A stretch of 64,000 bases of DNA from Coniferiporia sulphurascens (lineage: Eukaryota; Basidiomycota; Agaricomycetes; Hymenochaetales; Hymenochaetaceae): assembly GCA_002794785.1 (NCBI GenBank), contig NBBA01000004.1:2414160-2478159 (forward strand). Direction: 5' to 3'. This document shows positions 1-62,411 of this stretch, in pieces. The translations under genes were made by a program, and so were the position numbers. Under the pieces are notes generated by a model. That model did no database searches and had not been told where the DNA came from. It was given only the letters and a program-made list of their open reading frames with translations. Positions within the stretch are counted from its first letter, which is position 1. Each line of letters starts with the position of its first letter.

Positions 1-560
1 ATGACCGGCACGGGCAGGAACCCGTGGCCTTCGACCTTGCTGGGCATTGTCTTGATCACTTCATTGGCTATGCTCTCAGAGACGAGAAGAGCATCATTCC
101 GCTGGTATGCATCCGTAATGTCCATTTCGACGATGTCTTTTCGAATCCCCTTATGTGTAGAGCAAATAGAAACAACAGTACTCTGAGTCACGGGTGAGCT
201 CGGCCCGTAGACTACACTGGGCGAAGACATCTTCTTGATCCTGTCGCGGGGAGTCTCTTGGCTCACCGGTCCTCGTCCACGCTCGACGTCGATGTGCAGA
301 TGACGGGCAGCGTCACGGCGAAGGAGAAGAGGCTTGAGAGCTGATGGCATTTTCTGGCGGCGCTTCCTGACGACGCGATATACCAGCCAGATGATGAGGA
401 TAGAGACCAAAACCGACCCGCCGACACCGAAAGCGGGGACCAGGATGGGATGAGCAATAGAGGAGGTAGAAGCATTGACCACGGTGTCGACAGCTGGAGC
501 CGCTGCGACGTCGGAAATTATGTCGGGAGGAAGGACTGTGTGTAAAGGAATGGAAGGCAT
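1..560 (-). CDS. Copy A of the subtelomeric single-pass membrane protein family, 5' part, runs off the window
   Basis: The first 186 codons of a gene read leftward from an ATG at 560-558 and continue beyond base 1. The frame is open throughout. The protein starts MPSIPLHTVL. It has a short N-terminal segment, one hydrophobic stretch (about residues 39-62, ending IIWLVYRVV), and then a basic KRRQK stop-transfer run, so the tail is expected in the cytoplasm. It aligns along its whole length with exon 1 of copies B (16711-15971) and D (58551-59291), sharing RRDAARHLH, ERGRGP, ETPRDRIKKMSSPS, CSTHKGIRKD and VEMDITDAY. It is visibly more diverged than B and D are from each other. Function is unknown. 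Whether the rest of the gene is intact cannot be seen. Confidence 0.8.
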   Translation of the reverse strand, partial: MPSIPLHTVLPPDIISDVAAAPAVDTVVNASTSSIAHPILVPAFGVGGSVLVSILIIWLVYRVVRKRRQKMPSALKPLLLRRDAARHLHIDVERGRGPVSQETPRDRIKKMSSPSVVYGPSSPVTQSTVVSICSTHKGIRKDIVEMDITDAYQRNDALLVSESIANEVIKTMPSKVEGHGFLPVPV

Positions 561-630
561 AGCGGGATAGCGAGTGGGGGTGGAAAACTTAGTGTTCTTC
601 CTGCACGGTGAGGAGGCGGGGGTAACACGT

Positions 631-648
631 CAAGTTCACGAGGAGACC
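631..648 (-). promoter_or_regulatory. Conserved 18-bp 5' element of the family (copy A)
   Basis: On the minus strand this reads GGTCTCCTCGTGAACTTG. The identical 18-mer lies upstream of the start codons of copy B (16798-16781) and copy D (58463-58480). In D it sits about 20 bp downstream of a TATATAAAA box, which is where a transcription start would be expected. In A the TATA position is only TTATTAAAA. It may be a core-promoter or 5'-UTR element, or a remnant of an upstream reading frame. Confidence 0.5.
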
Positions 649-1796
649 CACGTCCGGTAGATAGGTTTTTAATAACACGACGACGTCTGAGACACTGAGG
701 TCAGCTTGACTCGAGTGACAGCTTGCATCTGCGGCGGGCCCATGCCAGCCATAGTCCACAGCACCAGCCCGCCCTCACATCGTGCGCAAGCAGCTCAAGT
801 GTACAAAACCACTCGAACTGCATGATGTAAGAATGAGGCTGGGTACCATTCTAAAAACGCGAAACTGAGCAGCAGCAAGCAGGGTAGTTCTATGGATCAA
901 CGCAACTCAGCCCGTTATCCTTCTGGAACCTGCGCGCTTCGATGCGATAGGTACTAGCAGATACCAGATAGGCGCCAAGGACTCCAATGTCCATCCGTAA
1001 TCCATTGACTATGTCATATTGAACATTGGTATAAGAGTGACAGCATTATCGCATATCGACTTGGTCAGCCAATGTGTGGGACGGAAATGAAGTTCCAAGA
1101 GGACGCGTCAATAGGGGAAGCTCGAGAAAATGAAAAAATCCGCCAGCTGTAGTAAGTAGCTGTGATCGTTAGTGACGCGATGCGACCCTTACTAGTATTT
1201 ATTGAGTGACCTCTTGGCGCAAACTTCAGTCTTTTGCTTCTGCCATTATTCACTAAAAAACGAAAAGCTTCTTGTGTATGATAAACGTAGTTTAACGCCG
1301 TCCGCAAAATTTTCGTGAACGCCTTTATGTTGGAATTCGGGAAGGTCCGGTTTATCCTAATCCGGTTCCTTTCTTACTAACAGTAAATTCACACTCCGAT
1401 CCAAGTTTCGGCATAGGTTAGGCATACCTTCTCCCGTCACCTTTAAAAAAAAAAGCAGCCCGGCAATTCACCACGACATATCTCTCTTCTTCCACTACTA
1501 TAGCATCATAAAATATAGTATAGAGAATCATGCACCAACCAGGAGACCTGAAGTACTTTTAGAAGTTGAGTGGGTTGTAGTTGAGAGTAGTGGTGTATAA
1601 TCACACAGTGGGGGAAAGGATATTCAATGTATTTCTTTGTAGGCTCACTGGCCACTCCTTTATACTAGTACTGTGGTAACTTATTAACTAATCCTTTAAG
1701 TTTATCCTTATTAGTTTTACTGTGGCTCTTTAGCCAGGAGTGTTAGTAAATTGATGAAAATTGTGATTGCCAGATTGACGGATTAGCAAGATTGAC
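649..1796. other. Region without a supportable gene upstream of copy A
   Basis: The first 200 bases weakly resemble the upstream regions of copies B and D. The rest becomes AT-rich from about 1200 onward and has only short frames broken by stops. I see no RNA gene or named element. Confidence 0.5.
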
Positions 1797-2797
1797 ATGG
1801 CAAGACCTGTAACTCTAATCGATACCAGGAACCTATGCCAACATTGTAAAGATGTAGATCAAGTAGCATGGAAAGCATTTAACATTGCATGTGCAACAGT
1901 AGGACAAAATGCAGGATATGACAACTGTCAAATTGTTAAGCTCAACAGTTACGCGGTGATCAACGTCGGGGCTTCCTGATCGTCGGAACTGATGGTGCGG
2001 CAACGGGGCTTCCTAGATGTCATAAGTTGGGGATGATCGTCGGTGGGGCTTCCTGATCGACGATGTGGACGCAGTAGGCTTCTGAGGGTAAGTCGGGTTA
2101 CGATGAAAAGGCTGAGGCACAACGGCGCACAGTAGACTGGTGGTAGCAGATAATGGGCTTGTATGAACAAAGAGCACAAGCTTAGGGCTTGTGCTACTGA
2201 AGTTACATGCTTATATGCTACTCTATGTGTTTACTACTGTAGCGGCCTGTGTAGGGTAGTTTACCAGACTAATGGAAGGTCATGGAAACCCAAGGAGTGC
2301 CTTGGTAATACAAGTAGGGCTATCAGTAAGCAAAGCACGTCATGATGGTGCAATAAGGCATCATCATGGCGTCTTATGGCGCAAGGCGGAATAAGGATGA
2401 GTAAGGCAGAGAGATGGGGGAGTTGTGCCGACTGATGATGATGAAGAGGAAGTGAGTCAGCGCAGTAAGGGAAAAGTAAAGGAAAATTGTAACACAAATT
2501 ACATTTGATCATACTACAGGGGAACAACAAGTGGCAGAAAGGCTAGAAGTAATAATTGAACATAGAGCAACTATGTTCTCATACCAATTGAATAGATATG
2601 TAATCAGTGCTTACACAAGAACCAAGATTTATAATCAGCCACATAATGAATTATGTTATCAAAGGGCAGTTATTACATCAACCAACTATGCAGAAGCAGC
2701 ACACCAAATAGTTCATACTATCAATAAACAATTACGAGAACAACTATTCGCATACAAAGCCAACTTCATAGCCAAAGGACACACAACAGTAGATTGA
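1797..2797 (+). pseudogene. AT-rich unidentified ORF split by a solo LTR
   Basis: An ATG at 1797 opens a frame that runs to the left LTR boundary at 1933. If the LTR and one copy of the CAAAT duplication are removed, the frame continues without a shift from 2500 to a TGA at 2795-2797, giving roughly 145 codons. After that stop the same frame stays open for about 38 more codons. The left part contains a CxxC pair (CQHCKD). The base composition is much more AT-rich than the gene core. I do not recognise the protein; a retroelement or another mobile-element origin is possible. The LTR insertion breaks it. Confidence 0.5.
1934..2494 (+). mobile_element. Solo LTR, 561 bp, with 5-bp target-site duplication
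   Basis: The element begins TGTTAAGCTC and ends ATTGTAACA, so it has TGTTA/TAACA ends as expected for an LTR. It is flanked on both sides by CAAAT (1929-1933 and 2495-2499), a perfect 5-bp duplication. A second copy of the same length lies inverted at 7377-7937 with a different duplication. Inside is a perfect 9-bp hairpin (AGCACAAGC at 2173-2181, GCTTGTGCT at 2187-2195) that the other copy also has. No internal retroelement genes lie next to it, so it is a recombined solo LTR. The parent family (Ty3 or Ty1 type) cannot be assigned from the LTR alone. Confidence 0.9.
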
Positions 2798-3076
2798 AAG
2801 GAACCAAACCAAAGACAGGAGTTAGTACCAATAGATAAGGAAATCATAATACAATGGTTCAATGATCATCAGGAAAAACTCAAAAAGCTGATAGACAATG
2901 GCAATTTCCATAGTAAAAGATAGTACTCCATAGTTTTTGTCAAATCTGATAGTACTTCATAGGCACACATAGTTTGGGTTGGTGGTGTAAGCCCAGGGCT
3001 CACTACTCTGACAACTACTGGTACTCCGATGCGCACGCTGGCGGATCCGACGCAGACCGCCAGGCCAGACACACAC
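2798..3076. other. AT-rich sequence continuing the broken ORF, then non-coding
   Basis: About 120 bases extend the open frame of the AT-rich relic past its stop codon. After that no frame is supportable. Confidence 0.4.
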
Positions 3077-3230
3077 CATCGGACAGGACACAGTCCGATG
3101 CACACTGTCGGACTGGACACAGACAGATGGAGCTAATCCTTGCACCAGCGGAGCCAACACACTCGCTGCGCATCGGACACCTATACACGTCGGACTATTG
3201 CACGTGTCCGCCCGTTGGTCACCTGACCTG
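3077..3230. repeat. Cluster of TCGGAC/GTCCGA palindromes
   Basis: CATCGGAC (3077-3084) and GTCCGATG (3093-3100) form a perfect 8-bp inverted repeat. Further copies of TCGGAC or GTCCG follow at about 3108, 3173, 3198 and 3208. The surroundings are AT-rich, so this GC-rich palindromic block stands out. No coding frame fits it. Confidence 0.55.
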
Positions 3231-3314
3231 ACCGACGGTCACATGATCGGAATTCCTCTGGACTGTACAGATCTACACTTACATAATTCCCCTGCTATTC
3301 CTGTCCGCTTTCTG

Positions 3315-3401
3315 CACCTTTGTTGCCTCAGTCTATCTGACAGCAACAAAGGTGAGTAGTTATAGCATGGAATGTATGTAGTCTATCTGACAGCAACAAA
3401 G
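3315..3401. repeat. 12-bp perfect hairpin overlapping a 22-bp direct duplication
   Basis: CACCTTTGTTGC at 3315-3326 pairs with GCAACAAAGGTG at 3343-3354 (12 bp, 16-nt loop). The 22-base segment at 3330-3351 recurs exactly at 3380-3401. The two signals overlap, so a hairpin-associated local duplication is likely. Confidence 0.7.
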
Positions 3402-3796
3402 ACACCTTTATCCTTTCTGTCCTAGGCTGAACTTTAGTGTTGCCAACTCCTGGTTGGCTTCCAGGTGGGTATGATTTTTCATAGGTGCATATAGTGAGAC
3501 ATAGCACATGGGATATCTCATAGTCATGTAGACTGAATGGCACCATAGTTTCTGTAGAACGTGATAGCACCACAGTTATTTTTCAGTGATTATGTATTAT
3601 ACAGTATATCCAGCCCGGCACTGTGTGTAGTATTAATAAGCCAATACATTATTTATTATAAATGGTTGTACAAATCTATATAGATGTCGCCTATTTCGGC
3701 TCCTCTACCTGTAAAACTGCAGTTCCATGCACACCAACAGGGGCGAGATGGAGGCAGGAGGACATGCAGCATGCATGATTTCTGACTTAGAAAATT

Positions 3797-5650
3797 TTGT
3801 TGTCAGGTAGTTTCGGGAATTGCCGGGAGTGTTTACCCAAAGCGGACGATGACACGTGTCTTTTGTCTGTCCTTTTTCTCTCTCACCTCAACCATGTCGT
3901 CTGTGGTCACAAATCTATTGTAAGTCCAAATGGTTTCTTTTTAAAACTAGAGCCTGACAAGCTACCTATTCTACACATAATTTCAGGTATGCAGAGGAAT
4001 GATAAACATGAGTCAAGTGTAGCATTATCTTCTTCAGTGTCATCCTCATTGCCTCCCGTTAATAGGTTTTCACCTGCTGTCACACCTGCTCCGACTTCCA
4101 CACGCACGAAAACCTCACATACAAACCATTGGATTCCTCAGCTGCACAAATCTCAACGTGCGCATACACCACCATCCCGGAGGCGTTATTAGAGGACCTG
4201 CACAAGCCATGTAAGACCTCCCACCGTCATCTGTCGTCTGTCCCCCTGCATGGCCCCAAGGCTAATTTTCAGGTCCTCGTTCTGGAACGCTTCCGACCGG
4301 TAGACCAAGCATGGCAGGCCAATTTGCACGTGTGACGCCGTTCCCGGGCTGGCCTGGTCTTGGGTTCCCAGAAGCACAGCAGCAGGCGGACAATGCCGGC
4401 TCGCCACAAATGCAACCTCCTTCGGGTCCGCATGGCTTGCCGCCGACTGCAGCAAGACAGATGCATCCACCTGGCGCACCTAATCAACAATTACAGATGC
4501 CCAACTGATGACTGAAATTGGAGAGGACGAACCTCAGACAGCGATCCAGCACGTGGAGAAGAAGGTGCAAAAATGGTGTGCCTCCTCTTCGTTCGTGAAG
4601 TCTCCACTTGTGGCCTCTACGGAGCAGACAGTGCTCGATCCGACAAACATGCCGAACAACGTGCCGTTGGCCGATTCCGATGTCGATATCAACGTTGATG
4701 GCGTGCAGCCCCTCAAGCTTGACGACTTTACGTGGAACATAACCTCTGCAGGGTCCCTCTCTCCCGAGTTCGAACCCACTTTTGCGCTCTTCTCTGACCA
4801 AGATCGCGTACTTTCCGTGCACCTCGGCAGGAGACTTGAAGGTTCCATTTGTCTAATGCCGATAACCTGTACTTACTCCTCGTCCACTCCGCCGCAGCAC
4901 GCTGGGTCGGCACCCTTCAAAGACTAGCACTGGGCTCCGTAGGTGGCTCGCACTCACCTCTGTCGAGGCAAGGACCGCCGCCCCCTGAATATAGTACATT
5001 GTTATCCCTTTTTCAAGTTTTCCTAGTTGATGCTGGAGAAAGAGCAGCTGGTAACTTATCACATACCCCTGACGCATTGAAACGTGCATACAATATCTTG
5101 CTGCAGGCCCTTGGCCACTTGAAACGAACGAATCAAGTACGTCGCCTTCATTATTTGTTACCAATGAAACCCGAGTTATGCTAAAAATACAATATGGCCC
5201 AAGTGTGTGGTTGATGATATGAGCGTAGGCTTAACGTGTCCTTCAATACACTTAACCATGAAATGCTGTCAGTCGACTTGGGCCTCATGGAGGGTAAGTC
5301 CTTGTCTCTGGTAACAGTGATTATTGCCTGTACTGATGGTTATGTGTAGCAATAGCAGCGGGGGACCAGCAGCGTTTGCTGGCTATTCATGCTGAGGCTA
5401 TTGGTTCAAGGGTCTCATTCGGACAACATTGGGCCATGGATGTCTGTCATTAAGTCGCTCGGCCGATGGATCGCAGCACTGTGCGTGACTGTCAGGACAT
5501 GAAACTTCTCTGGGACTACAAGTTTGCAGAGAAGCTGTGTCTCAACCCCCAATTCCCTGGTGTGTTCTGGTTATCTTTTGTAAGTATTATACCATTGTTT
5601 GTATGCTTAACCCACCTGCATGTACATAAGTTTATTCAATGGAAAAATGT
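3797..5650 (+). pseudogene. Decayed multi-exon coding relic, unidentified
   Basis: Several plus-strand stretches have coding character. 4311-4508 is rich in Pro, Gln and Gly. 4508-4927 is an acidic frame. 4940-5130 contains a helical-looking segment. 5230-5300 and 5350-5600 contain frames such as HEMLSVDLGLMEG and MKLLWDYKFAEKLC, separated by plausible GT-AG introns (for example donor GTAAGTCC near 5293, acceptor TGTAG near 5350). Stops and frame changes prevent one continuous model. It could be a gene fragment carried by a mobile element. I do not recognise the family. Confidence 0.35.
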
Positions 5651-11800: not shown

Positions 11801-12314
11801 AGAAGACAATCCTTGTGTGTTGTCTATAACCAATTACAATATACCATGATTATTACAATGCCTTATAATACAGTGCAAAAACTTGTGTTTGTGTTGTATG
11901 CGATTAAAATCACGATACAAGCCTTACAACATTCTTACAATGCCTTGTATTGCTGCGTGAGAATTGCAATCAGTATGTAAGTCTTATCAGCTGATTACAT
12001 GCGCTTAGAATGTCGTGTGATCAACTTTATATGCTTACATGTTCTTATGATGTGACGTAATCCTTGTACACCGCATGTAAACCCTAAAACTACTGGGAAG
12101 GGTTTTTTCATTTTTGTGATGTGCACCTTTGGAAGGGGGCCGCATCATGTGTATGTGCTATGCTTGAGATGCCACACCTGCACCCACTGGCGCAGAGGAA
12201 AGGAAGAAGGCAGGCTTTCATGCACACCGTGACACAGTACTCCGGGCAGCTGCACGTGTAAATGGGGAGACACAGCCGCCACTATGTGTACCGGCCTCGT
12301 GAGTTCTTGACACT
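8864..12314. other. Relic zone without an intact gene
   Basis: Short frames occur on both strands. 9540-9800 has imperfect internal repetition (variants of ACACCTGCATGGARCAC). 10150-10700 has plus-strand frames with coding flavour (for example [20 protein letters not shown] near 10556) but no continuous model. 11830-12080 is a low-complexity run built on TTACAATGCCTT variants. I see no tRNA, no complete transposase and no named domain. Confidence 0.4.
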
Positions 12315-12445
12315 GTAGATTATGTTTGCACATAAGATACGCAGACCTTATGCGCACCGTAAATTATGTTTGTCCATAAGACATGCAGACCCTACGCACC
12401 CAAAATTATGTTTGCGCCTAAGGTGTGTAGACCTTATGCGCACAC
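12315..12445. repeat. Three tandem copies of a 43-44-bp unit
   Basis: Units start at 12315, 12359 and 12402. Each contains ATTATGTTTG, then a CATAAG-like and an AGACC core, and ends near GCGCACC. Units differ by a few substitutions and a one-base deletion in the second. The array stops about 16 bp before the outer edge of the large inverted repeat. Confidence 0.8.
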
Positions 12446-12767
12446 CAAAATAAGATAAAGGCGGGATACATCAACAGGAAATCACACTTCGAGGAAGATG
12501 AAGAAGAGATGGTTGATTGGATATATATGAGAATCAACACATTGATAAAAAAAACCGAATACTAGATCATGGACGACGGCCAGAAAACGTGAAAGCACAG
12601 TTCAAATATCGAGAGACCGAGACCGAGAATAACAGACAAAGCGTCGAGGCGGCCGTGTATATACACACCTCATGCAACCAGAAAAGAGAACAGACGCAGC
12701 AGACAGCAGACACAGATAGACACACCGGGAACAAAGAGAAACGCAGTCTGAGATACGAGCCGAGATA

Positions 12768-15700
12768 TCATGTGATAAAATATGGGGTATTTTGGGTATA
12801 TGCCAACCGTCGTGGTCGACGGAGTGGCTGACTGAACGCCATTTGGCCCTCGGAAAAGTAGGAAGTCCCCATGGGGCCAGGCTTCGGACCATCCATCGCA
12901 GCCCTGGTGCGCAACAGGGAGGACGAAATCGGAGCCCCTAGTGTCGAAAAGTAGCCGGTATGCGCCCTACCTTGACGAGCGACATAACTTGTAGCCATTG
13001 TAGGTTGAGACGCCGACGCCATGGTAGGTACGGTCCTACCGGACGATGATAGAAGCGCGCTGCCATGCCTAGAGAAAGCTGGGTATCGGGAGAGTCCGTG
13101 AGACACATCAGAGAGTGAGATGAGAGTGTCCCGCCTGCTAAGAACCGTAGACAGTCGATGCACACTCTTTGCCGTACGCAAGATGAGTGCGGACCCAGGA
13201 TTACCAGAGGGAGGGCGAACTTGTATCGCCGGTCGACAGATACCAGATGAGAGAGAAGCCGTCCCAGCTGATGTTCTAGTCTTTGCCATCGTTGGAAGCG
13301 GTAGACTAGTCTTGATGTTCGAAACAGACCGGGCCAGAGAGCAAGAAGAGAGCCTAGCAGTACGCAGGACAAGAGAAGACTCAGTAGCAGACCGTGGCTG
13401 GGTGTCCTTCAGTGGCTGACGACGACCTTCAGATACAGCATATTCAGGCCCAGTAGGTACATTCGAGGACTTGCTGATTGTCGATAAGACTCTCTTGATG
13501 AACAGCTTCGAGACCTTTGAGGGTGCGGGTGCAGGATCAGGTGTGACTTCGACTTCGATTTCGATCTTGGGAGGTCCAATGATGACAAGACCGGAAGCGA
13601 GTGGAGACGAATCTAATGGTGCGTAAGGCCGAGGACCACTGCGACTCCTAGGCGGTGTTGCAGACAGATGGGGTGCGCGCTTGGAGCACGTCGACATCGC
13701 CCTTGCTAAAACTGGGGAAGACGGCAGTCGCGGCATAAGTCTCAAATCCCTTGCACGCTTGGCTGCACGTTGTACGATCTCCAGGCCGCCTGAGGATCGA
13801 ATAGCATCGAACAGGATCACACGGGCGTCGCGAAGAAAGCTGGCCGCGGTGGGGCGAGCATGAGCGCCGAAGCGCATCTTGCATAACTCCATATAGGCCG
13901 ATGGTCTAGGTTGAGGGAGAACGCCTTTGCAGATGTCCGCTGCGAGGAGAGGAGCAATCTCCTCGAGAGATAGGTCGTCGAATACAGTTCCAATTTTGAA
14001 GCGGCCAATGAAGTCACTCTGATCGTACTCCACTGGATCATGTTTAGCCGATATCGCTGTCGTCGCACTGTAATTTGTTGGCGACTTGTCGAGCTCGATG
14101 CATTTAAATTTCGCCTTGAGGTCGACTTGGTCCATTAACTGAGGGCTGTCAGTGTCGAAACTGAAAGATATCATTGGAATATGAAAACACAGCATATTCA
14201 AAGAACGTACCGGTTGTCGCCGCCATCCCGCAGCGCTTGTAGATCCTCAGCACCCAAGACAGTATTCTCAACTCCACTCGTGTCGGCTATGACACAGGCT
14301 TCACGTCCCACAGACGCCGCGGATGCAGACGCACTCGAGTTGAAAGTAGTGTTGAGTGTCGTGTCGATCGTAGTCGCCGAGTCAAAGTCATCGATAAGGG
14401 ATGGGGCAGATGCCCAGCTCTGATCACTGTCCATTGAAGCGACCTATACGGAGTCAATCATGGTCAGCCACCATAATCTGCAGCGACGACAGAACAACTT
14501 GCCTTGGACTCATGCTTGACATCGGTTGTGGGCTGGCTGACCTGTGCCACAACCATGGATCCTTCGGGCCGTTTAGACGCAGACTCCTTTGCAGCGGTTG
14601 CGAGCGAGGAGCCGGTGACTTGTGTCTGCATATCCAATGCACCGTTGATCGCCGATCTGCCGGAAACCCCCACAATGCTCCTCCTGCGAGCGGCCTTGCC
14701 GTATGTTGCAACTGGGTCAGTTAGGAACCTTGAGCTTCCAGACGAGGGTGAACCCGCCAAGGGTGAACGGACGATAGACGATGGATTGGTATCCAGGCTT
14801 CGTTTGCGCGTGTCTGACGGTGCAACGCGCCTCGGGGTCGACGTTGCCCTTGGTGGAGTCGTAGAATTCAGGGGCCCGGGCTTCGCATGTCTCGTGCGCA
14901 ATAAATTACACCGCAAGTCACGCGAGCCTCCAGGTGATCCCCCGCCTCCGTGCGATTGCGCACTATCGTCTCGAATGACACCGACCACTGCAGAGCGAGC
15001 ATCTGCGATAAATAGCGCCTTGCTCAGCTCCCTGTCGTCTGGTGGTTCCATAGTGAGTGATATGCCGCCGTCGTCCGCCGCCGAAAGAGGGTGCTCGGTT
15101 TCTTCAATGATGGAGTCCTCGTAACTCGTCCTAGTTGTCCGGTCGCCGTGATCTTGCTCAGAGAGAGTTGCGTATTCACTTCCCTGGGTAGCTGCTGTTG
15201 TGATCTCGTTCGTTGCCGCAGGAGAAGATGTCTGTTCGTCGTCCATCGTGTTGACCTTGATGTATTCGACTTTAGCCTCCAGCCCAATGTGCTCTGCGCG
15301 CGATGGTGCCTTCATCTCGTGACTAATGGATGGTTAGGATTCGTTGGACGTAAGGGACGCAAAGAAGCTCACTGAATATCGCTGCCGTTACGGGGCGCTC
15401 TGACGTCTTTCACCACTGCATTTATGCCCTTGAGTTTACTAGCGAGGGAGATCGGTTGCGGGTCGATTGTCGGGGTTGGTGCATTACCGATACCCATCGA
15501 GGCGAGGAATATGGACGGGGTTGAAGTCCAATTGTTCCAATCACTTGCACCCATGGCCTGCTGGGAAGACAGTCAGTATGTGGAACGAACCAGTAAGAGT
15601 AGACGCTTACCTCGGACTCGTCCTCTGCAAAGATCTCTACAGAGGGGAGGATGGCAGTGCTCCCAATCCAGCCAGTGCGCTCATTTGAGGAGCCTTCTGT

Positions 15701-16711
15701 CGCAATACTGTTCGGGTGACTGGAAAGAAGGCCCTTTAACTCTCCCTGCGATGCGTCATCCGTCGATTTGTTGGTACGGGACTCAGTGCAAGTAGACCCA
15801 TCAGCCTCTGCGGTTGGAACTGCCAGAGACTTGGAATTGCTGAGCTCGCAGGATGTGACTATAAGCGCCGGTACCGGGACCCGGCTCTGGATGACATCCA
15901 TTTGAGCGACCTATTCGACAATAAAGTAAGCTTATGCAATACTCGCGAAGGGCACGATGCAATCAATTACCTCGCATTCATCCTCTCCGATTGTCTCAAG
16001 CGTGGGGGGAGCGGACCGACTCAAAAATCGACCAGAGCGTTCCGTAACAAAGCCTTCAGTCGACACCGCAATCAAGTGGCTGGAGAGGCGCCTCTTTGGT
16101 GGCTCCTGCGGAACCGTCAGCTTGTTGGTGCAAGGATCCGTGCGGAGAGTCCTGCCAGCCTCCACGACTGGGACAGTCAGGAATTTGGGGCCCTCCTCTT
16201 CGCTGGCTGGCCGATTCTTCGTGCTCGCAGGAACCAGTAACTTATCGTCCCGCTTGTATGCGTCCGTAATGTCCATTTCGACAGTGTCCTTCCGAATCCC
16301 CTTGTGTGTCGAGCAGATGAAGATAACAATGCTTTCCGTCACGGGTGAACTCGGCCCGAAGACGATACTGGGCGAAGACATCTTCTTGATCCTGTCACGG
16401 GGAGTCTCATAGCTCGTTGGTCCTCGTCCACGCTCGATGTCGACATGCAGGTGACGGGCAGCGTCGCGGCGGAGACGGAGAGGTTTGAGAGTAGGCAGTT
16501 TCTTCTGGCGGCTCTTCTTGACGATGCGATATACTAGCCAGATGATGAGAGCAGAAACTAGGAGGGAGCTGCCGATAGCGAGAGCGGGAGCCAGGATAGG
16601 ATGGACGACAGGGGGTGTCGCAGCACCGGCTATGGCGTCAACAGCAGGAGCGGCTGTGACTATGGAGGCTGGATCGGAGAAAAGGAGCGTGTTTAAAGGA
16701 ATGACAGGCAT
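12768..16711 (-). pseudogene. Copy B of the subtelomeric membrane protein family, disrupted
   Basis: Five exons match copy D: 16711-15971, 15910-15611, 15560-15373, 15322-14211 and 14160-12768. Intron positions and splice sites are conserved. Exons 1 to 3 are open and encode the same short N-terminus, single membrane segment and polar tail. Exon 4 carries an in-frame TGA (14466-14464) where D has CGA, a one-base deletion just after it, and a TAG (14446-14444) where D has CAG. Exon 5 is open but has an extra base near the end, so the last 30 or so codons differ and the shared stop is skipped. D's TATATAAAA box reads TACATAAGA here. A truncated protein of about 0.7 of full length could still be made. 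Confidence 0.8.
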
Positions 16712-26558: not shown

Positions 26559-27475
26559 CTACACAGTCAGAGTTCCAGTACCGGACGTTGCCTCCGTACC
26601 ACCTTGAGCAGTCTTCAGGAACTGTGAGCTAGGTAGACCCTGGTTCGCAATGAGGAACTGAGGCACGGCAAACAGCGTGATTAGCATTTCATTTCGCACA
26701 AAGCTCACAGGGCAAGTGTACTCGCCTTCAAGAACGAGTTGATATCACCACTGAAGTTCTGAATGGTTCCACTGGTAGGGAGGAAGGAAAATACGTTATT
26801 TACACCATTTGTGCCGGAGAATAGATTCCTGCGTCCCGGCGACTTTCAGAATTTGGACCGCTCTGATTGGATCTATGTCATGGCCTACCAGGTGTGTCCT
26901 TCAAGACTAATGTCCGTCACGGCGGGTACAGCCTGGCCTTCTGCATTAAATACGGCGGAGATAGGTCCCGCGTTGATATTCGCGAGCCAGACCATAATCT
27001 CGTTGATGTTATCGCCAGTGGGAGATGTCGACGTAAAGAGATCGTACGCAACATCCGCGACAGACGTACTCGTAATGTCGTACGACCATTCCCAGGTTGA
27101 CTGTGTACGTATTAGATGCAAACATAGCAATTCTCGAAACCTTACCGGTAAACTTGAAATCTCGCTAAGCTGACGACCAATATTTGCATCGAGATTGATA
27201 TTCGAAAAGCTTTTCACGCCCGTACCGCCTGTCCACGTCCAGTTTGTCACCCACGAAATCGTCGAGCCACTCAAGGTAGAAATATGTGCGCATTGGGATC
27301 CGGACGTTGCACCACCCGAACCGAATTGGTCCAGAAAAAGCGTATATGGTCCGACGACAACGGAATCAAATTGGCCGCAATGTGCGCTCGTATCTACACT
27401 CTGGCGTGTCTCCAGTGCGCGCGAAGCGGTGACGAGGGCTGGAAGGAAAGAGAGGATGACAAAAAGTGGGAACAT
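26559..27475 (-). CDS. Secreted GH12 endoglucanase/xyloglucanase
   Basis: A glycoside hydrolase family 12 enzyme that cuts beta-1,4-glucan or xyloglucan outside the cell; 247 aa, normal for the family. Exons: 27475-27146, 27100-26889, 26828-26726 and 26657-26559, and all phases close. It has a signal peptide (MFPLFVILSFLPALVTAS). GH12 motifs follow in order: CGQFDSVVVGPYTLF, SWVTNWTWTGG, TWEWSYD, NEIMVWLANINAGPIS (nucleophile Glu144), GHTW-NLFSGTNGVNNVFSF, SGTIQNFSGDIN and FLKTAQGGTEATSG (acid/base Glu237). The third intron starts with GC instead of GT (AAG|GCGAGT). Splicing there restores the conserved ending exactly. If that donor is not used, the protein would be cut short before the second catalytic Glu. 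Confidence 0.9.
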
Positions 27476-28313
27476 CGCGTAGTCAGACGTTCCAAGACAA
27501 GTCCACTCGGTAGACTTATAAGTTACAGGCCGACGTCAGGTGCTCTGGTACATGTAGAATAAGTTTGTTCTTGAGAAAATCAATCCAACATCGAGATGCC
27601 CAAAATTCGAAACGATTGGACGACGTACCCCACAAAATATCCGGCGGGCCGCTCGAAGCTAATGCCCAAGGCAAACCTCATGCTAGATGCTAAAGTAAGA
27701 CACAGTAATAACGTTGGAAGGGAAATAAGTGCCTTTAACAGAAGTGGAGAGTGGAGAGTCAATTAGAAGGTCCAATAATACGAAGCCGTGGTTTTAAAAC
27801 CTGTATTCCATGGGAAGACTCGCACCCATCGGGTACTGCATGAGAGTCTTTTCGGAGAACGAGACTCGCAGTGACACATAAATAGGTGATCCGCTTTAGG
27901 TATAATTGATATTCGTCGTAGAGTGCGCATCAACCAGCTGGAGATGGATATTCCTTTATTAAATATTGAGAATGACAGGATTCAGATGAGGGTTGTAAGC
28001 GGAACAAATATAGACGAGCGTCGGTAAGGAAGGGTAAAGTCCGGGCTCAGCCTCTTCAACACGAGCCCTTCAAGACGCATCTGTCACCGAATTAAACGGG
28101 TATCCAAAATAATTACACTAACTGTTTTTCAACTCAGCGAGGAAGGCGTGTGAGGAAGTCAGAGCCCACCAAAGAATTCACGCCTCCCGCCTTTCCGCGA
28201 GCTCTGGAACTTTGCGTAACACATTAAGGACAACTGCATACTGCCTCCAATCATCAGATAACCGAAAGGGTCGCCAGGGGGTCACCGATTCGCTATCCAA
28301 TAACGCAGACCTG
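27476..28313. other. Intergenic, no supportable gene
   Basis: Upstream flank of the GH12 gene and downstream flank of the PPxY membrane protein gene, both on the minus strand. Only short frames. Confidence 0.4.
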
Positions 28314-32802: not shown

Positions 32803-34191
32803 ATGTCCGCTCGCAAGACAGTCAAAATCGACGTGATCTCTGACTTTGTTCGTCCTCTCGTATGCACTCTTAATTGTGCTCTGGCTAACCTGCGCGATGT
32901 CTAGATCTGCGCATGGTGTTACATTGAGCAGATAGAGCTCGAGCGCGGCATAGCGCTCGCACGCAAGGCAGAACTTCCACTCGACTTCGTAGTCCAGTTC
33001 CACCCGTTCATCCTCAACCCGTCTCTCCCATACGACACGCCCATTTCGAAAAGAGAGTTCTTCTTGCACAAGAAGGGTGTTAAATGGCCTGAGATTGTGG
33101 GGAGGGTTGAGGCGCGTATGAAGGAAGAAGGTCTGAAGTTGTGAGTTTCACTTTGTGTTGTTTCACATCCCTTCGCTTTCTTTTTGTCTCGTTCTCTCTC
33201 GGACCTTGGTTTCGTTTGCATGCTTCGGATCCGTTTGTCTTGTTATGCTTCGCTCCAGGCGACGCTCTATTCGGATTCCGGGTGTTATCGTTCTTCTTGC
33301 ACAGGCCGCATGCGGACGCCGGGTCCAGTTCACTGGCTCTCCTGCGCTCAATGGCTCGGCCGAAGCAGATAACACATCCACGGTCTCGGAGCTTTCGAGG
33401 CACGAACTTCTCTACCAAAAGGCGTGTCTCCCGCACGAGGGGGGTCAGGTCTTCTGGTTTATGCTCACCATCGGCGTCTTTGTCATCTATTATTTGACAA
33501 TATATGCTTAGTCATTTACTTTCTTAGTACACTTGACGGCAACGTGCGTCATACGCTGAATGCACATCGACTGCTGCAACATGCATACAACGTCGGAGGG
33601 CAAGATTTACAAAGCCCGCTTATGAAACGCGTCTTCGTCGCCTTTTTCGCTGAAGGGCGAGACATCGGTGACGTGCGCGTGCTCGCAGAGCTCGCGGTCA
33701 CCCCCGGACCCGAGCCCGAGTTTGATGCCGATTTACCATCGAAATCTAGCTCAATCACAGTCGATGAAGAAAAGCGGGTAGAGAAAAGCCTGTTCGCGAA
33801 CGTGGAAGAAGCGCAGCGCTGGCTCGAGGGCGACGAACTCTCCGACGTCGTGCGTGATGCAAGCGCGAAAGTTGCAGAACGCGGCGTCACTGGTGTGCCT
33901 TTCGTGGTCTTTAACGGCCGGTGGGCTGTCGGGGGCTGCCAGCAGCCTGAATGCTACTTCAAGGTACGCTGTTTTGTTGTTCATCCACAGAGACCCGCTG
34001 ACCTCGGATCTCTTTTCCGCTCTTTGCATTTGTTTTTCTTGGCATAGATATTCGAGAAGCTTGCGAACACAGGCGAGCTCGCTTCGTGTCCATCAGTCCA
34101 TGTGACTCCCAAGTCAAACAGCATGGAGAATACCTCCTGCTCGATATCCGCAACTCCTTCGACCCCGGCAGTAGCCGTTACAACACACTGA
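32803..34191 (+). CDS. DsbA-like thioredoxin-fold oxidoreductase (FrnE/2-HCCA isomerase family)
   Basis: 286 aa from four exons: 32803-32847, 32905-33140, 33528-33963 and 34048-34191. All phases close. It belongs to the DsbA/FrnE-type thioredoxin superfamily: an N-terminal beta strand KIDVISDF, a CxxC active site CAWC (17-20) followed by YIEQIELERG, a helical insertion containing FTLDGNVRHTLNAHRLL, and a C-terminal TGVPFVVFNGRWAVGG that supplies the cis-proline. Bacterial and fungal relatives act in thiol-disulfide exchange; the substrate here is unknown. There is no signal peptide, so a cytosolic location is inferred. The second intron is 387 nt, far longer than every other intron of the confident genes, and holds a 118-codon open frame. 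The C-terminus (SNSMENTSCSISATPSTP) is low-complexity. Confidence 0.85.
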
Positions 34192-53269: not shown

Positions 53270-56200
53270 TTGTTCCCCTCACCATCCTTTAGTGAACAAT
53301 CACGGGTTAGAGTTCCCACCTCTCTTGTCGCAACTGCTTCCGATGTCAACGCCATGGCCGGTACTGTGACTTCTTGTTTTCATAGCGGTCTTACCCCGCT
53401 CGGCTATTGAGATCTCCTCTTTCATCTGGCCATTATATCGCTTCGCTGATAGTCACAACAAGAACAAGCCAGTGTCTCTTATCTTGTCACCTGCGTGCCG
53501 ATATTCAAATGGACAAGGCACACCTCCGTTTAGAACACTCTTTGCGAGAGGATCGGGATGATGTCCTAACCTGCATCATATTCGAGCTGGGATCTCCTTA
53601 AATATGGGGGACCTTCGTATTTGCTTGCACACGAAAGAAAGATACCGGACGTTCTTACGCGTATATTTGCATATCTCAGAACTCTTGCTCTGTGTGCGCC
53701 ATGGCAAAAACCCGCGGGACAGTAAGCTCCGAGATTTCTGTTGACAAGGCTATCTGCAGCTATACATAGCCCACTAACATAAATTTGACCTATGATACTT
53801 CGCAGGGATATCAAAGGGTCCTCCTTCCGTTAATCTAGATAGAAGATCGCGATCATGCCCGCCTTCCAAGTTCTGGTCGCTTAGGCTGCTCAACCCGAAA
53901 CCAAGACCATTACAAGTAGCGAGGTTGAAGCAGACGACTGTCTATTTCGTTTTTCTACGATGGCTAATTACTTTCTTGAGCGGACTGCCAAAATGGGTAA
54001 TTTGTGCGGCTGGACTTTAATCTGTGGCTTTGGTGTGCGTCGTCAATACGATCTCGGTCAATATCGACAGAAAAATTTCGACGACAATCACGGAAATCAG
54101 CACATACAGAAATCAGCACATGCGCCAATGTCCAAAGATATTGAGGGGCTGAATGTTGGCATTGACACCCGTTATTTTGTCTGTCGACCCTTGATTGAAT
54201 CTCTCAGCACTGATATCGCCGTTCTACTTTCCATAGGCTTTTCTGAGGCTACTGAGAGTACGCCATTAACTGGTAGTCGGACCAGCACTTTGGCCTTGGC
54301 TGATGACCGGAATCATGATTGCAACTCCTCGGGCAAAAATTTGCTCTATACCAATTGCAAGCCGGAATGTTTGACTAAACCACTCGGAATCGGAATCGGA
54401 TTCCAACTTTTCTTCCCTAAAGAATTTGAGCTCTTCCTTACGGTGGCTGACAACATCTTTGACGGCATGCTTCCCCGCGTCAATTTATCAATTGACAAGG
54501 GGCTGAGGTCAATGCAGCCTTTGAAACGAGCCGTCGCTGCTGCTGAACGCATGATTCCGCTGATATTGTTTACATCAGCAGCTAGTCAACTGACAGCACC
54601 AAGATGGCGAGGTATCACGGAGTCGATGACTCTGGGTTTTCGATTACTTTCATTGTTAGTGTGGCGGCTGACTAGGCCGTGAGCAACACGGCGTCAGCAA
54701 TTGTTATCAGCAAACAAGAATCCAGACCATGACTGCGGCATGCACCCCGCGCCTGTACGACCTATTTAAACCATGAGTCGAGAATCTTCCTTTCCCTGGG
54801 ATTATTGACGAGAGCGAACCCGAAGCGAGTTTCTGCCGTTGATGTCTTTCCGGCGGCTGACCCCACTTCCGCTCGGTTCGCACGGAAGATCTACAACTAC
54901 CAAAGCCGGGTGTCAGCCGCGTTCGTTATCGAAAAGTCGGCGAACAGCTCGGCATATTTTGCCGATACGACCAACAACGTTGTCTCACGACCTAGATATT
55001 TCCTCGACATTCGCCAAGGGTGAGGGATGTATCATTTCCGGTTGGGACGGACCCGGGCACGTAGGCGTGATGACAAAGGTCGTTCAAGGGCCATTAGACG
55101 GTTGTGATTTTCGGTATGTCGCAAACGCGTACTCCATCCGGAAGTTGTTATTGACGCATCGAAGTCTCGAAAAGCCCGAGGCTGTACTATCCGCGGGCAA
55201 ACTCGAATCGAAGGCAGGGGTTAAATACTCTGGGGTTATGAAGTCACCGATCTCGTTAAATCCGTGAAGACGACGACTAGGAACCCTTCTAGATCTTCTA
55301 CCAGTTACGATCGGTATAACTATACTGGTTGCCTCGGAATGGGACTGCACTCGAAAATTTGCTTCTAGTAGGGAGCCTTCTTTATCCTTGCTCCAACATC
55401 CGTAATGACGTCCTTCCCCAATCGAAATCAGTAGGCAACACAGTCTTCGGCGCCAACGCCCGTTTAACCGCGGGCGACATTCTTCGCGAAGCCCGTATGA
55501 CCCTGTTCAACAATATATGCTCCCCTGGATGTTTGCACGTTTTGCATTGTGCTGCGTTGCGTGTGAATCAAGCGGAAGTTCCGCCAAAGATCCCCGCTTC
55601 GCTTGCTGTGGCAAGAGCGGTGTCGAATCCCGAGCGTTCTACACGATCGGCCCATCCGCTACCGATGCTACCCCTGAATCGCACTGGGCCCCGGCCTTAT
55701 GCCCCATCGGCCTCGTCCCCAACTGTTGATAGTCTGGTCATCATTGGACTCTCCAAGTCTGAATTCGAAGTCGCACCTGCACGCATGTCTGCAGAGATTT
55801 CTAAAATGTCTATCAAGAGCGTTGTCTCGACAATAGCTAAGACCTTAAGGGTACCTGCTTTTAACGCGAATAGAAAAAGTTCCCCTGCATCTAGAATCTA
55901 TCGTCGGGACTGAAGGATACCCAACCGATACGTGGGACAAGGATTCTTGACACTCAACGTACCGCTGGACTTTCTTCCTGCGCCCCGACTCTGCCCTTTC
56001 CGGATCTTAATAGCAACTCGCCACTGCCAGCGAGGCTAGTTGGTGTACCAGTGGCCAAGGCTCGTCGGGGTGAAATCAGTAAGCCATCTGGTGCTCCTGG
56101 ATTCTCAGGACATACTCGTCCTTCCTCTGGTAATATTCGGTATCCAACGCCTACTGGTCCGCGTACGCCCCTCAATAAAAATGCACAAAGGTTGTTTGTG

Positions 56201-56461
56201 GGTTTCGGTATGTTAAACACTCCTACGTTTCCGTCCATTGTGAGGCGTGGGTTCTCTCGTCCTCTATTCATGTCGAGTCAAGGACATCCTCCGTCACTGC
56301 CTACAATTGAGACATCCACTAGATCGATGACGTTCAAATCTACGACACAGCTCCCGACCTCATGTCCCTCTTCGCACCTCAATTCTACGACGAATCGCTC
56401 TCTACTGGACTCTAATTCCAGGAGAAGATCGCCTACGTCCCGGAAAGCTATCTGGCGCTGA
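53270..56461 (+). pseudogene. Copy C of the subtelomeric membrane protein family, full-length relic
   Basis: Colinear with copy D but heavily decayed. Near 53340 the DNA still matches the N-terminus (GTCAACGCCATGGCCGG against D's GTTGACGCCATGGCCGG), and the segment that follows matches the membrane-span region with a TGA. 53460-53600 matches D's RHLHVDIERGRG...MSSPS region. 54840-55110 matches the end of exon 4 (GCIISGWDG...GCDFR against GACVIADASG...GSDIR), with a GTATGT donor at the equivalent place. 55290-55913 and 56051-56461 match exon 5 (AGDILREARMTLFN, GPRPYAPSASSP, MSIKSVVSTI) in two different frames, with the shared final AIWR-stop. Stops and frameshifts throughout rule out function. 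Confidence 0.75.
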
Positions 56462-56889: not shown

Positions 56890-56982
56890 AATTCACAAAG
56901 GCTCTCTGAATATTAATGTAGTCGGAGGACCGGTCGGGCGAAAGAATCCGAAATTGCACTTGCCATATTTGGAGACGTGGCT

Positions 56983-57820: not shown

Positions 57821-57833
57821 TGGAGACGCGGCT

Positions 57834-58436: not shown

Positions 58437-58480
58437 TATATAAAACCTGTCTGTCTGACACAGGTCTCCTCGTGAACTTG
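58437..58480 (+). promoter_or_regulatory. Core promoter of copy D
   Basis: TATATAAAA at 58437-58445 lies 106 bp upstream of the ATG at 58551. The family 18-mer GGTCTCCTCGTGAACTTG follows at 58463-58480, near the expected transcription start. Copies A and B lack a good TATA box at this place. Confidence 0.65.
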
Positions 58481-58550
58481 TCGCTTTACCACCACTTGCT
58501 CATAGTGCAAAACGACCCTCGAAGTTCTCGCTCATCCCCCGCATCTCACC

Positions 58551-61500
58551 ATGCCTGTCATTCCTTTAAACACGCTCCTTTTCTCCGATCCAGCCTCCAT
58601 CGTCACAGCTACTCCTGCTGTTGACGCCATGGCCGGTGCTGCGACTTCCCCTGTCGCTCATCCTATCCTGGTTCCCGCCTTCGCTATCGGCAGCTCCCTC
58701 CTAGTTTCTGCTCTCATCATCTGGCTAGTGTATCGCGTCGTCAAGAAGCGCAACCAGAAGAAACCGCCTGCTCTCAAGCCTCTCCGTCTCCGCCGCGACG
58801 CTGCCCGTCACCTGCACGTCGACATCGAGCGTGGACGAGGACCAACGAGCTATGAGACTCCCCGTGACAGGATCAAGAAGATGTCTTCGCCCAGTATCGT
58901 CTTCGGGCCGAGTTCACCCGTGACGGAAAGCATTGTTATCTCCATCTGCTCGACACACAAGGGCATTCGGAAGGACACTGTCGAAATGGACATTACGGAC
59001 GCATACAAGCGGGACGATAAGTTACTGGTTCCTGCGAGCACGAAGAATCGGCCAGCCAGCGAAGAGGAGGGCCCCAGATTCCTGACTGTCCCAGTCGTGG
59101 AGGCTGGCAGGACTCTCCGCACGGATCCCTGCACCAACAAGCTGACGGTTCCTCGGGAGTCTCCAAAGAGGCGTCTCTCCAGTCACTTGATTGCGGTGTC
59201 GACTGAAGGCTTCGTCACGGAACGCTCTGCTCGGGTTTTGAGTCGGTCCACTCCCCCCTCGCTTGAGACAATCGGAGAGGATGAATGCGAGGTACTTGAT
59301 TGCATCGTGTCCTTTGCGAGTATTTCATAAGCTTACTTTATTGTCGAATAGGTCGCTCAGGTGTATGTCATCCAGAGCCGGGTCCCGATACCGGCGCTTA
59401 TAGTCACATCCTGCGAGCTCAGCAATTCCAAGTCCCTGTCAGTTCCAACCACAGAGGCTGATAGGTCTGCTCTCACTGAGGCCCGCACCAACAAATCCAC
59501 AGATGACGCATCGCAGGGAGAGTTAAGGGGCCTTCTTTCCAGCCACACGAACAGTATCGCGACGGAAGGCTCCTCAGATGAGCGCACTGTCCGGATTGCG
59601 AGCCCTACCATCCCTCCCGCGGTGGAGATCTTTGCAGAGGACGAGTCCGAGGTAAGCATCTTTTCTTACTGGTTCGTTCTACATACTGACTGTCTTCCCA
59701 GCAGGCCATGGATGCAAGTGATTGGAACAATTGGACTTCAACCCCGTCCATATTCCTCGCCTCGATGGGTATCGGCAATATTGCATCAACCCCGACAATC
59801 GACCCGCAACCGATTTCCCTCGCTAGTAAATTCAAGGGCATAAATGCAGTGGTGAAAGACGTCAGAGCGCTTCGTAACGGCAGCGATATTCAGTGAGCTT
59901 CTTTGCGTCCCTTACGTCCAACGAATCCTAACCATCCATTAGTCACGAGATGAAGGCACCATCTAGCGTAGAGCACATTGGGCTGGAGGCTAAAGTCGAA
60001 TACATCGAGGTCAACACGATGGATGACGAACAGACAGCTTCTCCTGCGGCAACGAACGAGATCACAACAGCAGCTACCCAGGGAAGTGAATACGCAACTC
60101 TTTCTGAGCAAGATCACGGCGACCGGACAACTAGGACGAAATACAAAAGCTCTATCATTGAAGAAACCAAGCGCCCTCTTTCTGCGGCGGAAGACGACGG
60201 CATATCCCTCTTTACGGAACCACCAGACGACAGGGAGCTGAGCAAGGCGATGTTTATCGCAGATGCTCGCTCTGCAGTAGTCGGTGTCATTCAAGACGAT
60301 GGTGTGCAGTCGCACGGAGGCGGGGGATCACCTGGAGGCTCGCGTGACTTGCGGCGCAATTTATTGCGCACGAGGCATGCGAAGCCCGGGCCCCTGAGTT
60401 CTACGACTCCACCAAGGGCAACCTCAACCCCGAGGCGCGTTGCACCGTCGGACACGCGCAAACGAAACTTGGGTACCAATGCATCGTCTATTGCTCGTTC
60501 ACCCGTGGCGGGTTCACCCTCGCCTGGAAGCTCAAGGTTCCTAACTGTCCCAGTTGCAACATACGGCAAGGCCGCGCGCAGGAAAAGCATTGTGGGGGCT
60601 TCCGGCAGATCTGCAATCAATGGTGTCTTGCATACCCGGAAGCAGGCCATCAGTTGCTCACGCGCAGCAGCTTCAATTAAGTCCGGATTTGAACGGTCCG
60701 AAGGATCCGTCGCGGTCAGCAAGTCCACATCTGACACCAAGCATGAGTCCAAGGCAAATCGTTCTGTCATCACTGCAGATTATAGCGGCCGATCATTGAT
60801 TGACTTCGTACAGCTCACTCCAGTGGACAGTGATCAGAGCTGGACATCTGCCCCGTCCCTTATCGATGACTCCGACTCGGCGACTACGGTCGACACGACA
60901 CTCGACACTACTTTCGACTCCAATGCGTCCACGGCGTCTGCGAGACGTGGAGCCTGTGTCATAGCCGATGCGAGTGGATTCGATAACGTTGTCTTGCGAC
61001 CTGAGGATCTACAAGCGCTGCGGAATGGCAGCGACATCCGGTACGTTATTCGAATGTATCCTGTTTTCATATTCTAATGATGTTTTCTAGTTATGATATC
61101 GACGACCCTCCGTCCACGAGTCAAGTCGACCTCAAGGCGAGGTCCGAATGCATCAAGCTCGACAAGTCATCGACAGACGACAGTGCGACGACAGTGTTAT
61201 CGGCTCGATATGCCCCAGAAGGGTACGATCAGGGTGACTACATTGGCCGCTTCAAGATTGGAACTGTATTCGACGACCTATCTCTCGAGGAGATTGCTCC
61301 TCTCCTCATAGCTGACATCCGCAAAAGCGTTCTCTCCCAACCCGGACCATCGGCCTATATGGAGCTAGGCAATATGCGCTTCGGCGCTCATGCTCGCCCC
61401 ACAGCGGCCGACACCCTTCGCGACGCCCGCGTGACCTTATTCGATGCTATTCGATCCTCAGGCGGCCTGGAGGTCGTACAACGTGCAGCTAAGCGTGCGG

Positions 61501-62411
61501 CAGATTTGAGACTTATGCCGCGACTGCCGTCTTCCCCGGTTTTAGCAAGGGCGATGTCGACGTGCTCCAAGCGCGCACCCCGTCCGTCTGCAACACCGTC
61601 TAGGAGTCGCAGTGGCCCTCGGCCTTACGCACCATTAGATTCGTCTCCACTCGCTTCCGGTCTGGTCATCATTGGACCCCCCAAGATCGAAGTCGAAGTC
61701 ATACCTGATCCTGCACCCACACCCGCAAAGGTCTCGAAGATGTCCATCAAGAGCGTCTTGTCGACAATCAGCAAGTCCTCCAAGATGTCTACTGGGCCTG
61801 AATCTGCGGTATCTAGATGTCGTCGTCAGCCACTGGCGAACACCCAGCCGCGGTCTGCTACTGAGTCTTCTAGTGTTCTGCGTACTGCTAGGCTCTCTTC
61901 TTGCTCTCTGGCTCGGCCTGTTTCGAACGTCAAGACTAGTCTACCGCTTCCAACGATGGCAAAGACTAGAACACCAGCTGGGACAGCTTCTCTTTCATCT
62001 GGTATCTGTCTACCGGCGATACAAGTTCGCCCTCCCCCTGGCAATCCTGGGTCCGCACCCATCACGCGTACGGCAAAGAGTGTGCATCGACTGTCTACGG
62101 TTCTTAGCAGGCGGGACACTCTCATCTCACTCTCTGATGTGTCTCGCGGACTCTCCCGATACCCAGTTTTCTCTAGGCACGACAACGCGCTTCTATCATC
62201 GTCCGGTAGGACCGTACCTACCATGGCGTCGGCGTCTCAACCTAGAATGGCTACAAGTTATGTCGCCCGTCAAGGTGGGGCGCATACCGGCTACTCTTCA
62301 ACACTAAAGGCTCCGACTTCATGCTCCCTGTTGCGTACCAGGGTTGCGATGGATGGTCCGAAGCCTGGCCCGAGGGGACTTCTTACTTCTCCGAGGGCCA
62401 AGTGGCGTTGA
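58551..62411 (+). CDS. Copy D: intact 1,216-aa single-pass membrane protein of the subtelomeric family
   Basis: Five exons: 58551-59291, 59352-59651, 59702-59892, 59943-61040 and 61091-62411. Introns are 60, 50, 50 and 50 nt with GT-AG ends and phases 0, 0, 2, 2; the total is divisible by three with no internal stop. A 38-residue N-terminus precedes one membrane span (about 39-62) and KKRNQKK, so the 1,150-residue tail should be cytoplasmic. The tail is Ser/Thr/Pro/Arg-rich. It contains ERGRGPTSYETPRDRIKK, two FLTVPV repeats, the repeated ALRNGSDI at the ends of exons 3 and 4, a weak repeat after each of those introns (LEAKVEYIEV / LKARSECIKL), GPRPYAPLDSSPLASGLVIIG and a Ser/Arg-rich end. 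No named domain is recognised. It is 1.4 kb from the telomere and transcribed toward it. Confidence 0.85.

What the first reader, a model, noticed from the sequence alone, without database searches (positions are those of the whole stretch)
1..62411. Four-copy subtelomeric family of single-pass membrane proteins with giant low-complexity tails
Copies A (1-560), B (16711-12768), C (53270-56461) and D (58551-62411) share exon order, a short N-terminus, one membrane span and a tail of over 1,100 residues. I recognise no known domain. Range of decay (D intact, B broken, C a relic, A diverged) suggests birth-and-death evolution at a chromosome end, as seen for surface or recognition gene families.
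Basis: partly seen in the sequence, partly recalled or inferred. Interest (0 to 1): 0.8.

Follow-up and report, generated by a model that had tools for sequence, protein, structure and literature searches.

The report
Chromosome-end family of fungal membrane proteins
A fungus, probably a wood-rot species, carries almost only at its chromosome ends a small family of undescribed one-span membrane proteins with very long inner tails; two copies look intact, while others have decayed or seem to have been cut off when a broken chromosome end was capped by a telomere-loving retroelement.

Summary
The window ends in a real telomere. D (58551-62411) is a clean five-exon gene for a 1,216-residue protein with one membrane span and no Pfam match. 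B and C are decayed copies; A is a diverged copy cut by the window edge. The genome search found 9 loci: five in the last 81 kb of C4, three within 2.5 kb of other contig ends, one internal relic (C20). A full copy, E, lies just outside the window; D and E differ by three in-frame indels and dN/dS is 0.56. A 47-residue segment just inside the membrane is the conserved core (dN/dS 0.07, D-A; 35 of 47 positions invariant including the one outside full homologue, from Phellopilus nigrolimitatus). A distant, span-less pair on C1 shares part of it. Copies on C9 and C21 stop inside exon 1 at a telomeric, Penelope-like element: apparently broken ends, capped. Best reading: lineage-restricted membrane-anchored scaffold or adaptor under birth-and-death at chromosome ends. 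'Surface recognition' is weakly supported: about 37 residues are predicted to face outward. 'Low-complexity' is not right: SEG masks about 9%. Genome probably Coniferiporia sulphurascens (inferred). Function untested.

The parts
58551..59291 (+). D exon 1: outer N-terminus, membrane span, conserved juxtamembrane segment, start of tail
   Evidence: open frame; splice sites shared with E and B
58665..58733 (+). D membrane span, about residues 39-61
   Evidence: best hydropathy window 39-57, 2.39; AlphaFold2 helix 40-70, mean pLDDT 91 for residues 51-60
58863..59003 (+). Conserved juxtamembrane segment, residues 105-151, predicted cytoplasmic
   Evidence: dN 0.058, dS 0.783 for D-A; no amino-acid change D-E; 35 of 47 positions invariant among D, B, A and P0001
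59352..59651 (+). D exon 2, an internal copy of the end of exon 1; absent from A
   Evidence: 39% identity, E 1e-13 without composition correction; alignment
59702..59892 (+). D exon 3
59943..61040 (+). D exon 4
61091..62411 (+). D exon 5 and stop; residues 830-930 are a second constrained stretch (dN/dS 0.18, D-E, on 9 changes)
15971..16711 (-). B exon 1, open
   Evidence: 95.0% to D over the first 684 bases
12768..15910 (-). B exons 2-5; broken in exon 4
1..560 (-). First 560 bases of copy A, which continues left of the window to C4:2411347
53316..56458 (+). C, relic with scraps of exon 1, exon 4 and exon 5
63338..63833 (+). End fragment of a telomeric reverse-transcriptase element, Penelope-like by layout (its 3' end lies centromere-ward)
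   Evidence: 16 further matches of 92-94% identity, 17 in all on 10 contigs, within about 7.3 kb of a contig end; a longer copy on C3 has a 1,334-residue reverse-transcriptase frame
63834..64000 (+). Telomere repeat array (TTAGGG)

Best explanation
A lineage-restricted gene family of Hymenochaetaceae-type fungi. Each intact member is an N-out, C-in single-pass membrane protein: about 37 residues outside, one span, a basic stretch, a 47-residue conserved juxtamembrane segment, then roughly 1,000 residues of loosely constrained tail inside. The most likely job is a membrane-anchored scaffold or adaptor: the juxtamembrane segment docks a partner and the tail carries further weak binding sites. 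The genes live at chromosome ends, duplicate and exchange pieces between ends, and are lost by point decay or by chromosome breakage inside the gene, after which an endonuclease-lacking Penelope-like element plus telomere repeats cap the end. Shown here: gene structure, copies, end location, constraint, mosaic similarity, truncated copies that run into the element and telomere. Inferred: topology, disorder, breakage and capping as the cause of truncation, exchange between ends. Guessed: the scaffold or adaptor role.
For: D and E are 94.6% identical over the gene; their three coding indels are 3, 12 and 3 bases, both frames are open to a stop, all four introns keep their splice sites. D-E dN/dS 0.56, bootstrap 95% 0.41-0.74. 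Juxtamembrane segment dN/dS 0.074 (D-A) while synonymous sites there diverged to 0.78. Homologue P0001 in Phellopilus nigrolimitatus, 53% over residues 36-165, same single span. 8 of 9 loci at contig ends. Copies on C9 and C21 stop in exon 1 at D positions 59234 and 59277 and run straight into the element and telomere repeats. B looks mosaic: 96.4% to C21 over 580 upstream bases but 80.7% to D over 269, while in exon 1 it is 95.0% to D and 91.8% to C21. Element: RVT_1 at E 1.9e-6 (28.2 bits, just under the 29.6 cut-off), no other Pfam family at E up to 0.1.
Against: No expression data were seen. AlphaFold2 gives the juxtamembrane segment and tail low confidence, from alignments of 4 and 3 sequences, so disorder is not proven; the charge-hydropathy score falls on the folded side (0.451 against a boundary of 0.422). 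Ser/Thr-Pro pairs are not enriched in the tail (22 against 20.4; 373 of 1,000 shuffles reach it), which speaks against a proline-directed phosphorylation scaffold. In the decaying or truncated copies the juxtamembrane ratio is higher (0.29 D-B on 2 changes, 0.16 D-C9 on 8). No partner is known. One relic (C20) is internal and the distant pair on C1 lies 133-159 kb from a contig start. Exchange between ends rests on identities, with no formal recombination test.
Confidence: 0.5

Rival explanations
1. Cell-surface or self/non-self recognition family: the outer N-terminus varies between copies and signals through the tail.
For: Subtelomeric, lineage-restricted, copy number in flux; residues 1-37 have dN/dS 0.83 for D-A against 0.074 in the inner segment.
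Against: Only about 37 outer residues by the charge rule, no domain; the ratio is 0.37 and 0.40 in D-B and D-C9; the end of the predicted inner tail varies as much.
Confidence: 0.15
2. Selfish or drive-like gene spread between chromosome ends.
For: Orphan, subtelomeric, intact and broken copies side by side; Phellopilus too has two copies, 93.7% identical over 333 residues, one without a predicted span.
Against: No evidence of drive was available; 35 of 47 juxtamembrane positions kept across genera fit a long-kept host role.
Confidence: 0.07
3. Passive hitchhiker: an ordinary gene copied with chromosome ends, the extra copies of no use.
For: 7 of 9 loci were not shown intact; D-E dN/dS 0.56 is only moderate.
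Against: Two open copies of 1,216 and 1,218 residues that differ by in-frame indels only, dN/dS below 1 (0.002 of 500 bootstraps at or above 1).
Confidence: 0.25

Closest known systems
Hypothetical proteins DFH11DRAFT_1878989 and DFH11DRAFT_464584 of Phellopilus nigrolimitatus (P0001, P0002)
   Same: P0001 has the same span and juxtamembrane segment, 53% over residues 36-165.
   Different: The good match ends after about 250 residues; a second match (23% over 428 positions, E 8e-7 without composition correction) is probably composition. No counterpart of D residues 815-935 was found. P0002 as annotated has no span.
Subtelomeric RecQ-like helicase families of fungi, e.g. Agaricus bisporus var. 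burnettii (PMC7473861, passages read)
   Same: Multicopy, full and truncated copies at chromosome ends of a mushroom, present in some strains only.
   Different: Those are helicases; this family has no Pfam domain.
Endonuclease-deficient Penelope-like elements, such as Athena of rotifers (PMC3846280, passages read)
   Same: Same layout as the capping element: at chromosome ends, reverse transcriptase without a detected endonuclease, truncated 5' side followed by telomere repeats.
   Different: Not tested by phylogeny here; it caps members of the gene family and is not part of the family.

Membership tests
Subtelomeric birth-and-death gene family | Copies concentrated at chromosome ends | tested here: met
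   8 of 9 loci: five in the last 81 kb of C4, three within 2.5 kb of other contig ends; D, C9 and C21 copies next to telomere arrays. 2.5 kb at each contig end makes up 0.39% of the assembly, 81 kb 12.8%. The tool scores only the best candidates, so counts are lower bounds; the grouping of 27 matches into loci is mine.
Subtelomeric birth-and-death gene family | Intact, broken and relic copies together | tested here: met
   D, E intact; B broken; C, C20, C9, C21 and C4-left partial; A changes frame in exon 4, where a short intron is not excluded
Subtelomeric birth-and-death gene family | Exchange between chromosome ends | tested here: inconclusive
   B upstream like C21, exon 1 like D, but no formal recombination test was run
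Cell-surface recognition family | Sizeable or domain-bearing ectodomain | tested here: not met
   about 37 outer residues by the charge rule; no Pfam domain
Cell-surface recognition family | Positive selection on the exposed part | tested here: inconclusive
   residues 1-37, 37 codons: dN/dS 0.83 D-A, 0.88 E-A, 0.74 B-A, 1.58 D-E on 5 changes, 0.37 D-B, 0.40 D-C9
Endonuclease-deficient Penelope-like element (capping element) | Reverse transcriptase | tested here: met
   RVT_1 E 1.9e-6, 1.4 bits below Pfam's cut-off; no solved structure matched
Endonuclease-deficient Penelope-like element (capping element) | No GIY-YIG endonuclease; 3' end centromere-ward; truncated 5' side with telomere repeats | tested here: met
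   only one longer copy was read
Endonuclease-deficient Penelope-like element (capping element) | Groups with Penelope-like elements in a reverse-transcriptase tree | not tested
   no tree was built

The most novel reading that the evidence does not exclude
The 47-residue juxtamembrane segment is a new docking module of Hymenochaetaceae fungi, shared in part with a span-less pair on C1, and chromosome-end turnover (breakage inside the gene, capping by a telomeric Penelope-like element, exchange between ends) is how the fungus keeps varying which membrane scaffolds with this module it carries.
Probability: 0.15. Interest if true: 0.65.

Novelty: new member of a known kind. Interest (0 to 1): 0.42.

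Why it matters
It adds an undescribed, lineage-restricted membrane-protein family with a clearly constrained inner segment, and it offers a snapshot of gene loss at chromosome ends: two copies cut within the same exon and followed by a telomeric retroelement, in the same genome as intact copies. That makes the link between telomere-bound retroelements and subtelomeric gene turnover in mushroom-type fungi directly testable among strains.

Tried and rejected
Known domain: none in Pfam for whole D, for exons 1, 4 and 5, or for P0002; a Hex_IIIa match to P0001 at E 0.23 is far under its cut-off. No solved structure by a profile of exon 1. Low-complexity tail: SEG masks about 9%. Proline-directed phosphorylation tail: no enrichment. 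D residues 815-935 in P0001: score below the shuffle mean in both stretches tried. D tail against C1 tail: score 84 against 55.3 +/- 7.5, 1 of 200 shuffles reaching it, taken as composition. Wider homologues: D whole (1 protein; only the 7,997 best candidates were scored), D residues 36-165 at E up to 10 (2 proteins of 232 candidates, both Phellopilus), C1 protein residues 18-130 (none of 309 candidates). These searches need shared 5-residue words and a similar length, so distant relatives can be missed. RNA families in the end of the window or in three loci with the capping element: none at E up to 1; I had looked for a hammerhead ribozyme. AlphaFold2 models were too weak for a fold search, and none was run. 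Recalled, tested by no call: KKMSSP in the segment resembles a basophilic-kinase or 14-3-3 site, and EMDIT resembles kinetochore MELT-type motifs; leads only. Papers: no paper of the library holds both 'subtelomer' and 'Hymenochaetales'; one search found none; the listings (titles and starts of abstracts, at most 20 rows each) showed no description of this family; beyond that I saw passages of PMC7473861, PMC10410303 and PMC3846280. The library lacks most subscription journals.
Full report
Setting. The window is C4:2414160-2478159 of a 39,347,566-base, 31-contig genome. Its right end is a telomere array. The genome's size and contig number agree with Coniferiporia sulphurascens FP133613 (39.4 Mb, 31 scaffolds) in Table 1 of PMC10410303 (passages seen), and the only outside homologues found are from Phellopilus nigrolimitatus of the same family, Hymenochaetaceae. 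This naming is an inference; Inonotus obliquus CT5 in the same table also has 31 scaffolds, but 38.1 Mb.

The gene. D reads in five exons to 1,216 residues. It has one membrane span, a short N-terminus, and net charge -2 before and +9 after the span, which by the positive-inside rule (recalled) puts the long tail in the cytoplasm. No Pfam domain is found. Exon 2 repeats the end of exon 1 and is missing from A. The tail is biased in composition (S+T+P+A 40%) but SEG masks only 104 of 1,216 residues (sum of six stretches).

Copies. A whole-genome protein search gives 27 matches, which I group into nine loci of this type plus one on C1: D; E (C4:2397273-2401140, 93.5% over 4,365 bases with flanks); B; A; C; C9:1923712-1924398; C21:692606-693328; a fragment at C4:5-791; and a relic at C20:261219-261413. 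Five lie in the last 81 kb of C4, three within 2.5 kb of other contig ends, one is internal. Counts are lower bounds by the tool's own note. The C4 left end shows no telomere repeats in its first 2 kb; the contig simply starts there. D, C9, C21 and the C4-left fragment all read toward the end of their contig; E reads the same way as D, while A and B read away from the right end.

Are D and E live? Their coding parts differ by three indels of 3, 12 and 3 bases, all four introns keep their splice sites, and both frames are open to a stop. D-E dN is 0.046 and dS 0.082, ratio 0.56 (bootstrap 95% 0.41-0.74). Intron divergence is 16 of 210, close to dS. Constraint is uneven: 0.18 for residues 830-930 (9 changes), 0.26 for 534-700 (17 changes), 0.85 for 931-1216; these stretches were chosen after looking at the alignment. 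B carries a single-base deletion in exon 4. A changes frame in the same region, where a short intron cannot be excluded. No expression data were available.

The conserved core. Residues 105-151, just inside the membrane, differ between D and A by dN 0.058 against dS 0.783 (ratio 0.074); residues 1-37 have 0.83, the span and basic stretch 0.18, residues 83-104 1.09 on 8 changes, residues 152-247 0.46. Among D, B, A and P0001, 35 of the 47 positions are invariant. In closer pairs the core ratio is 0 for D-E, 0.29 for D-B (2 changes) and 0.16 for D-C9 (8 changes). A pair of genes on C1 (158545-161021, modelled by me as 770 residues in three exons; and one at about 133.4 kb, 95% identical over 98 residues) shares part of this core and the basic stretch before it (score 106 against 28.0 +/- 5.3; 0 of 500 shuffles reach it); the modelled one shows no span. 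D finds the C1 gene at E 8e-4, the C1 piece finds D at E 2e-4, and a hand-made mixed probe finds both C1 genes at E 2e-5. No homologue of the C1 protein was found.

Turnover at chromosome ends. The copies on C9 and C21 follow D through about 250-270 bases of upstream sequence and into exon 1 and then stop, at D positions 59234 and 59277, directly at a telomere-repeat scrap and a 496-base element that is also present between D and its telomere. That element has 17 matches on 10 contigs (C3, C4, C5, C7, C9, C11, C13, C15, C19, C21), each within about 7.3 kb of a contig end (contig lengths). A 6.1-kb stretch of C3 shows it to be the end of a longer element with a 1,334-residue frame on the opposite strand that matches RVT_1 (E 1.9e-6, slightly below the Pfam cut-off) and no endonuclease family. 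Its 3' end faces the centromere, and its other side is cut at different lengths before the telomere repeats in D, C21 and C9. PMC3846280 describes this layout for endonuclease-deficient Penelope-like elements, which can start from exposed chromosome ends or breaks, are followed by telomere repeats, and are according to that paper the only kind in fungi (passages). In Agaricus bisporus, Penelope-like elements were also reported at chromosome ends (PMC7473861, passages). So the two truncated copies are best read as breaks inside the gene that were capped; that the two break points lie only 43 bases apart could also mean one shared event with later trimming. B looks mosaic between C21-like and D-like sequence. 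In Phellopilus, two copies 93.7% identical over 333 residues exist, one without a predicted span.

Function. Not shown. The predicted layout, the inner constrained segment and the loosely constrained tail fit a membrane-anchored scaffold or adaptor best, but Ser/Thr-Pro pairs are not enriched and the charge-hydropathy score does not call the tail disordered; AlphaFold2 confidence is low apart from the span, from very shallow alignments.

Verdict. A real, apparently undescribed (searches), lineage-restricted subtelomeric gene family; a new member of a known kind of phenomenon, with an unusually clear pair of truncated and capped copies. Moderately interesting.

Noticed in passing
L069 (C3:2474200-2480300), 986-4990 minus: A long telomeric reverse-transcriptase element with a 1,334-residue open frame, lying between two copies of the same 496-base end; several contig ends carry two or more copies of that end.
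   Followed up: partly
C1:158545-161021 and C1:133421-133771: Two distant paralogues, span-less in the one modelled, sharing the basic stretch and the PRDxIxKxSxPSxVFGPxSP core; no database homologue of the first.
   Followed up: partly
window 26888-27535, 30197-31201, 33373-34044: Ordinary genes between the copies: glycosyl hydrolase 12, MFS transporter, DSBA-like protein.
   Followed up: no
window 62521-62596: Minisatellite (19/38-base period) in the 3' flank of D.
   Followed up: no
window 12311-12451: Three-copy 42-44-base tandem repeat beyond the 3' end of B.
   Followed up: no
window 62412-62450 and the 3' end of A: About 38-44 bases at and just after the stop codon are 92-97% identical between A and D, E and B although the tails are diverged.
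   Followed up: no
A and B, exon 4 near D residues 690-700: Both A and B lose frame in the same short stretch: chance, a hidden intron or exchange.
   Followed up: partly
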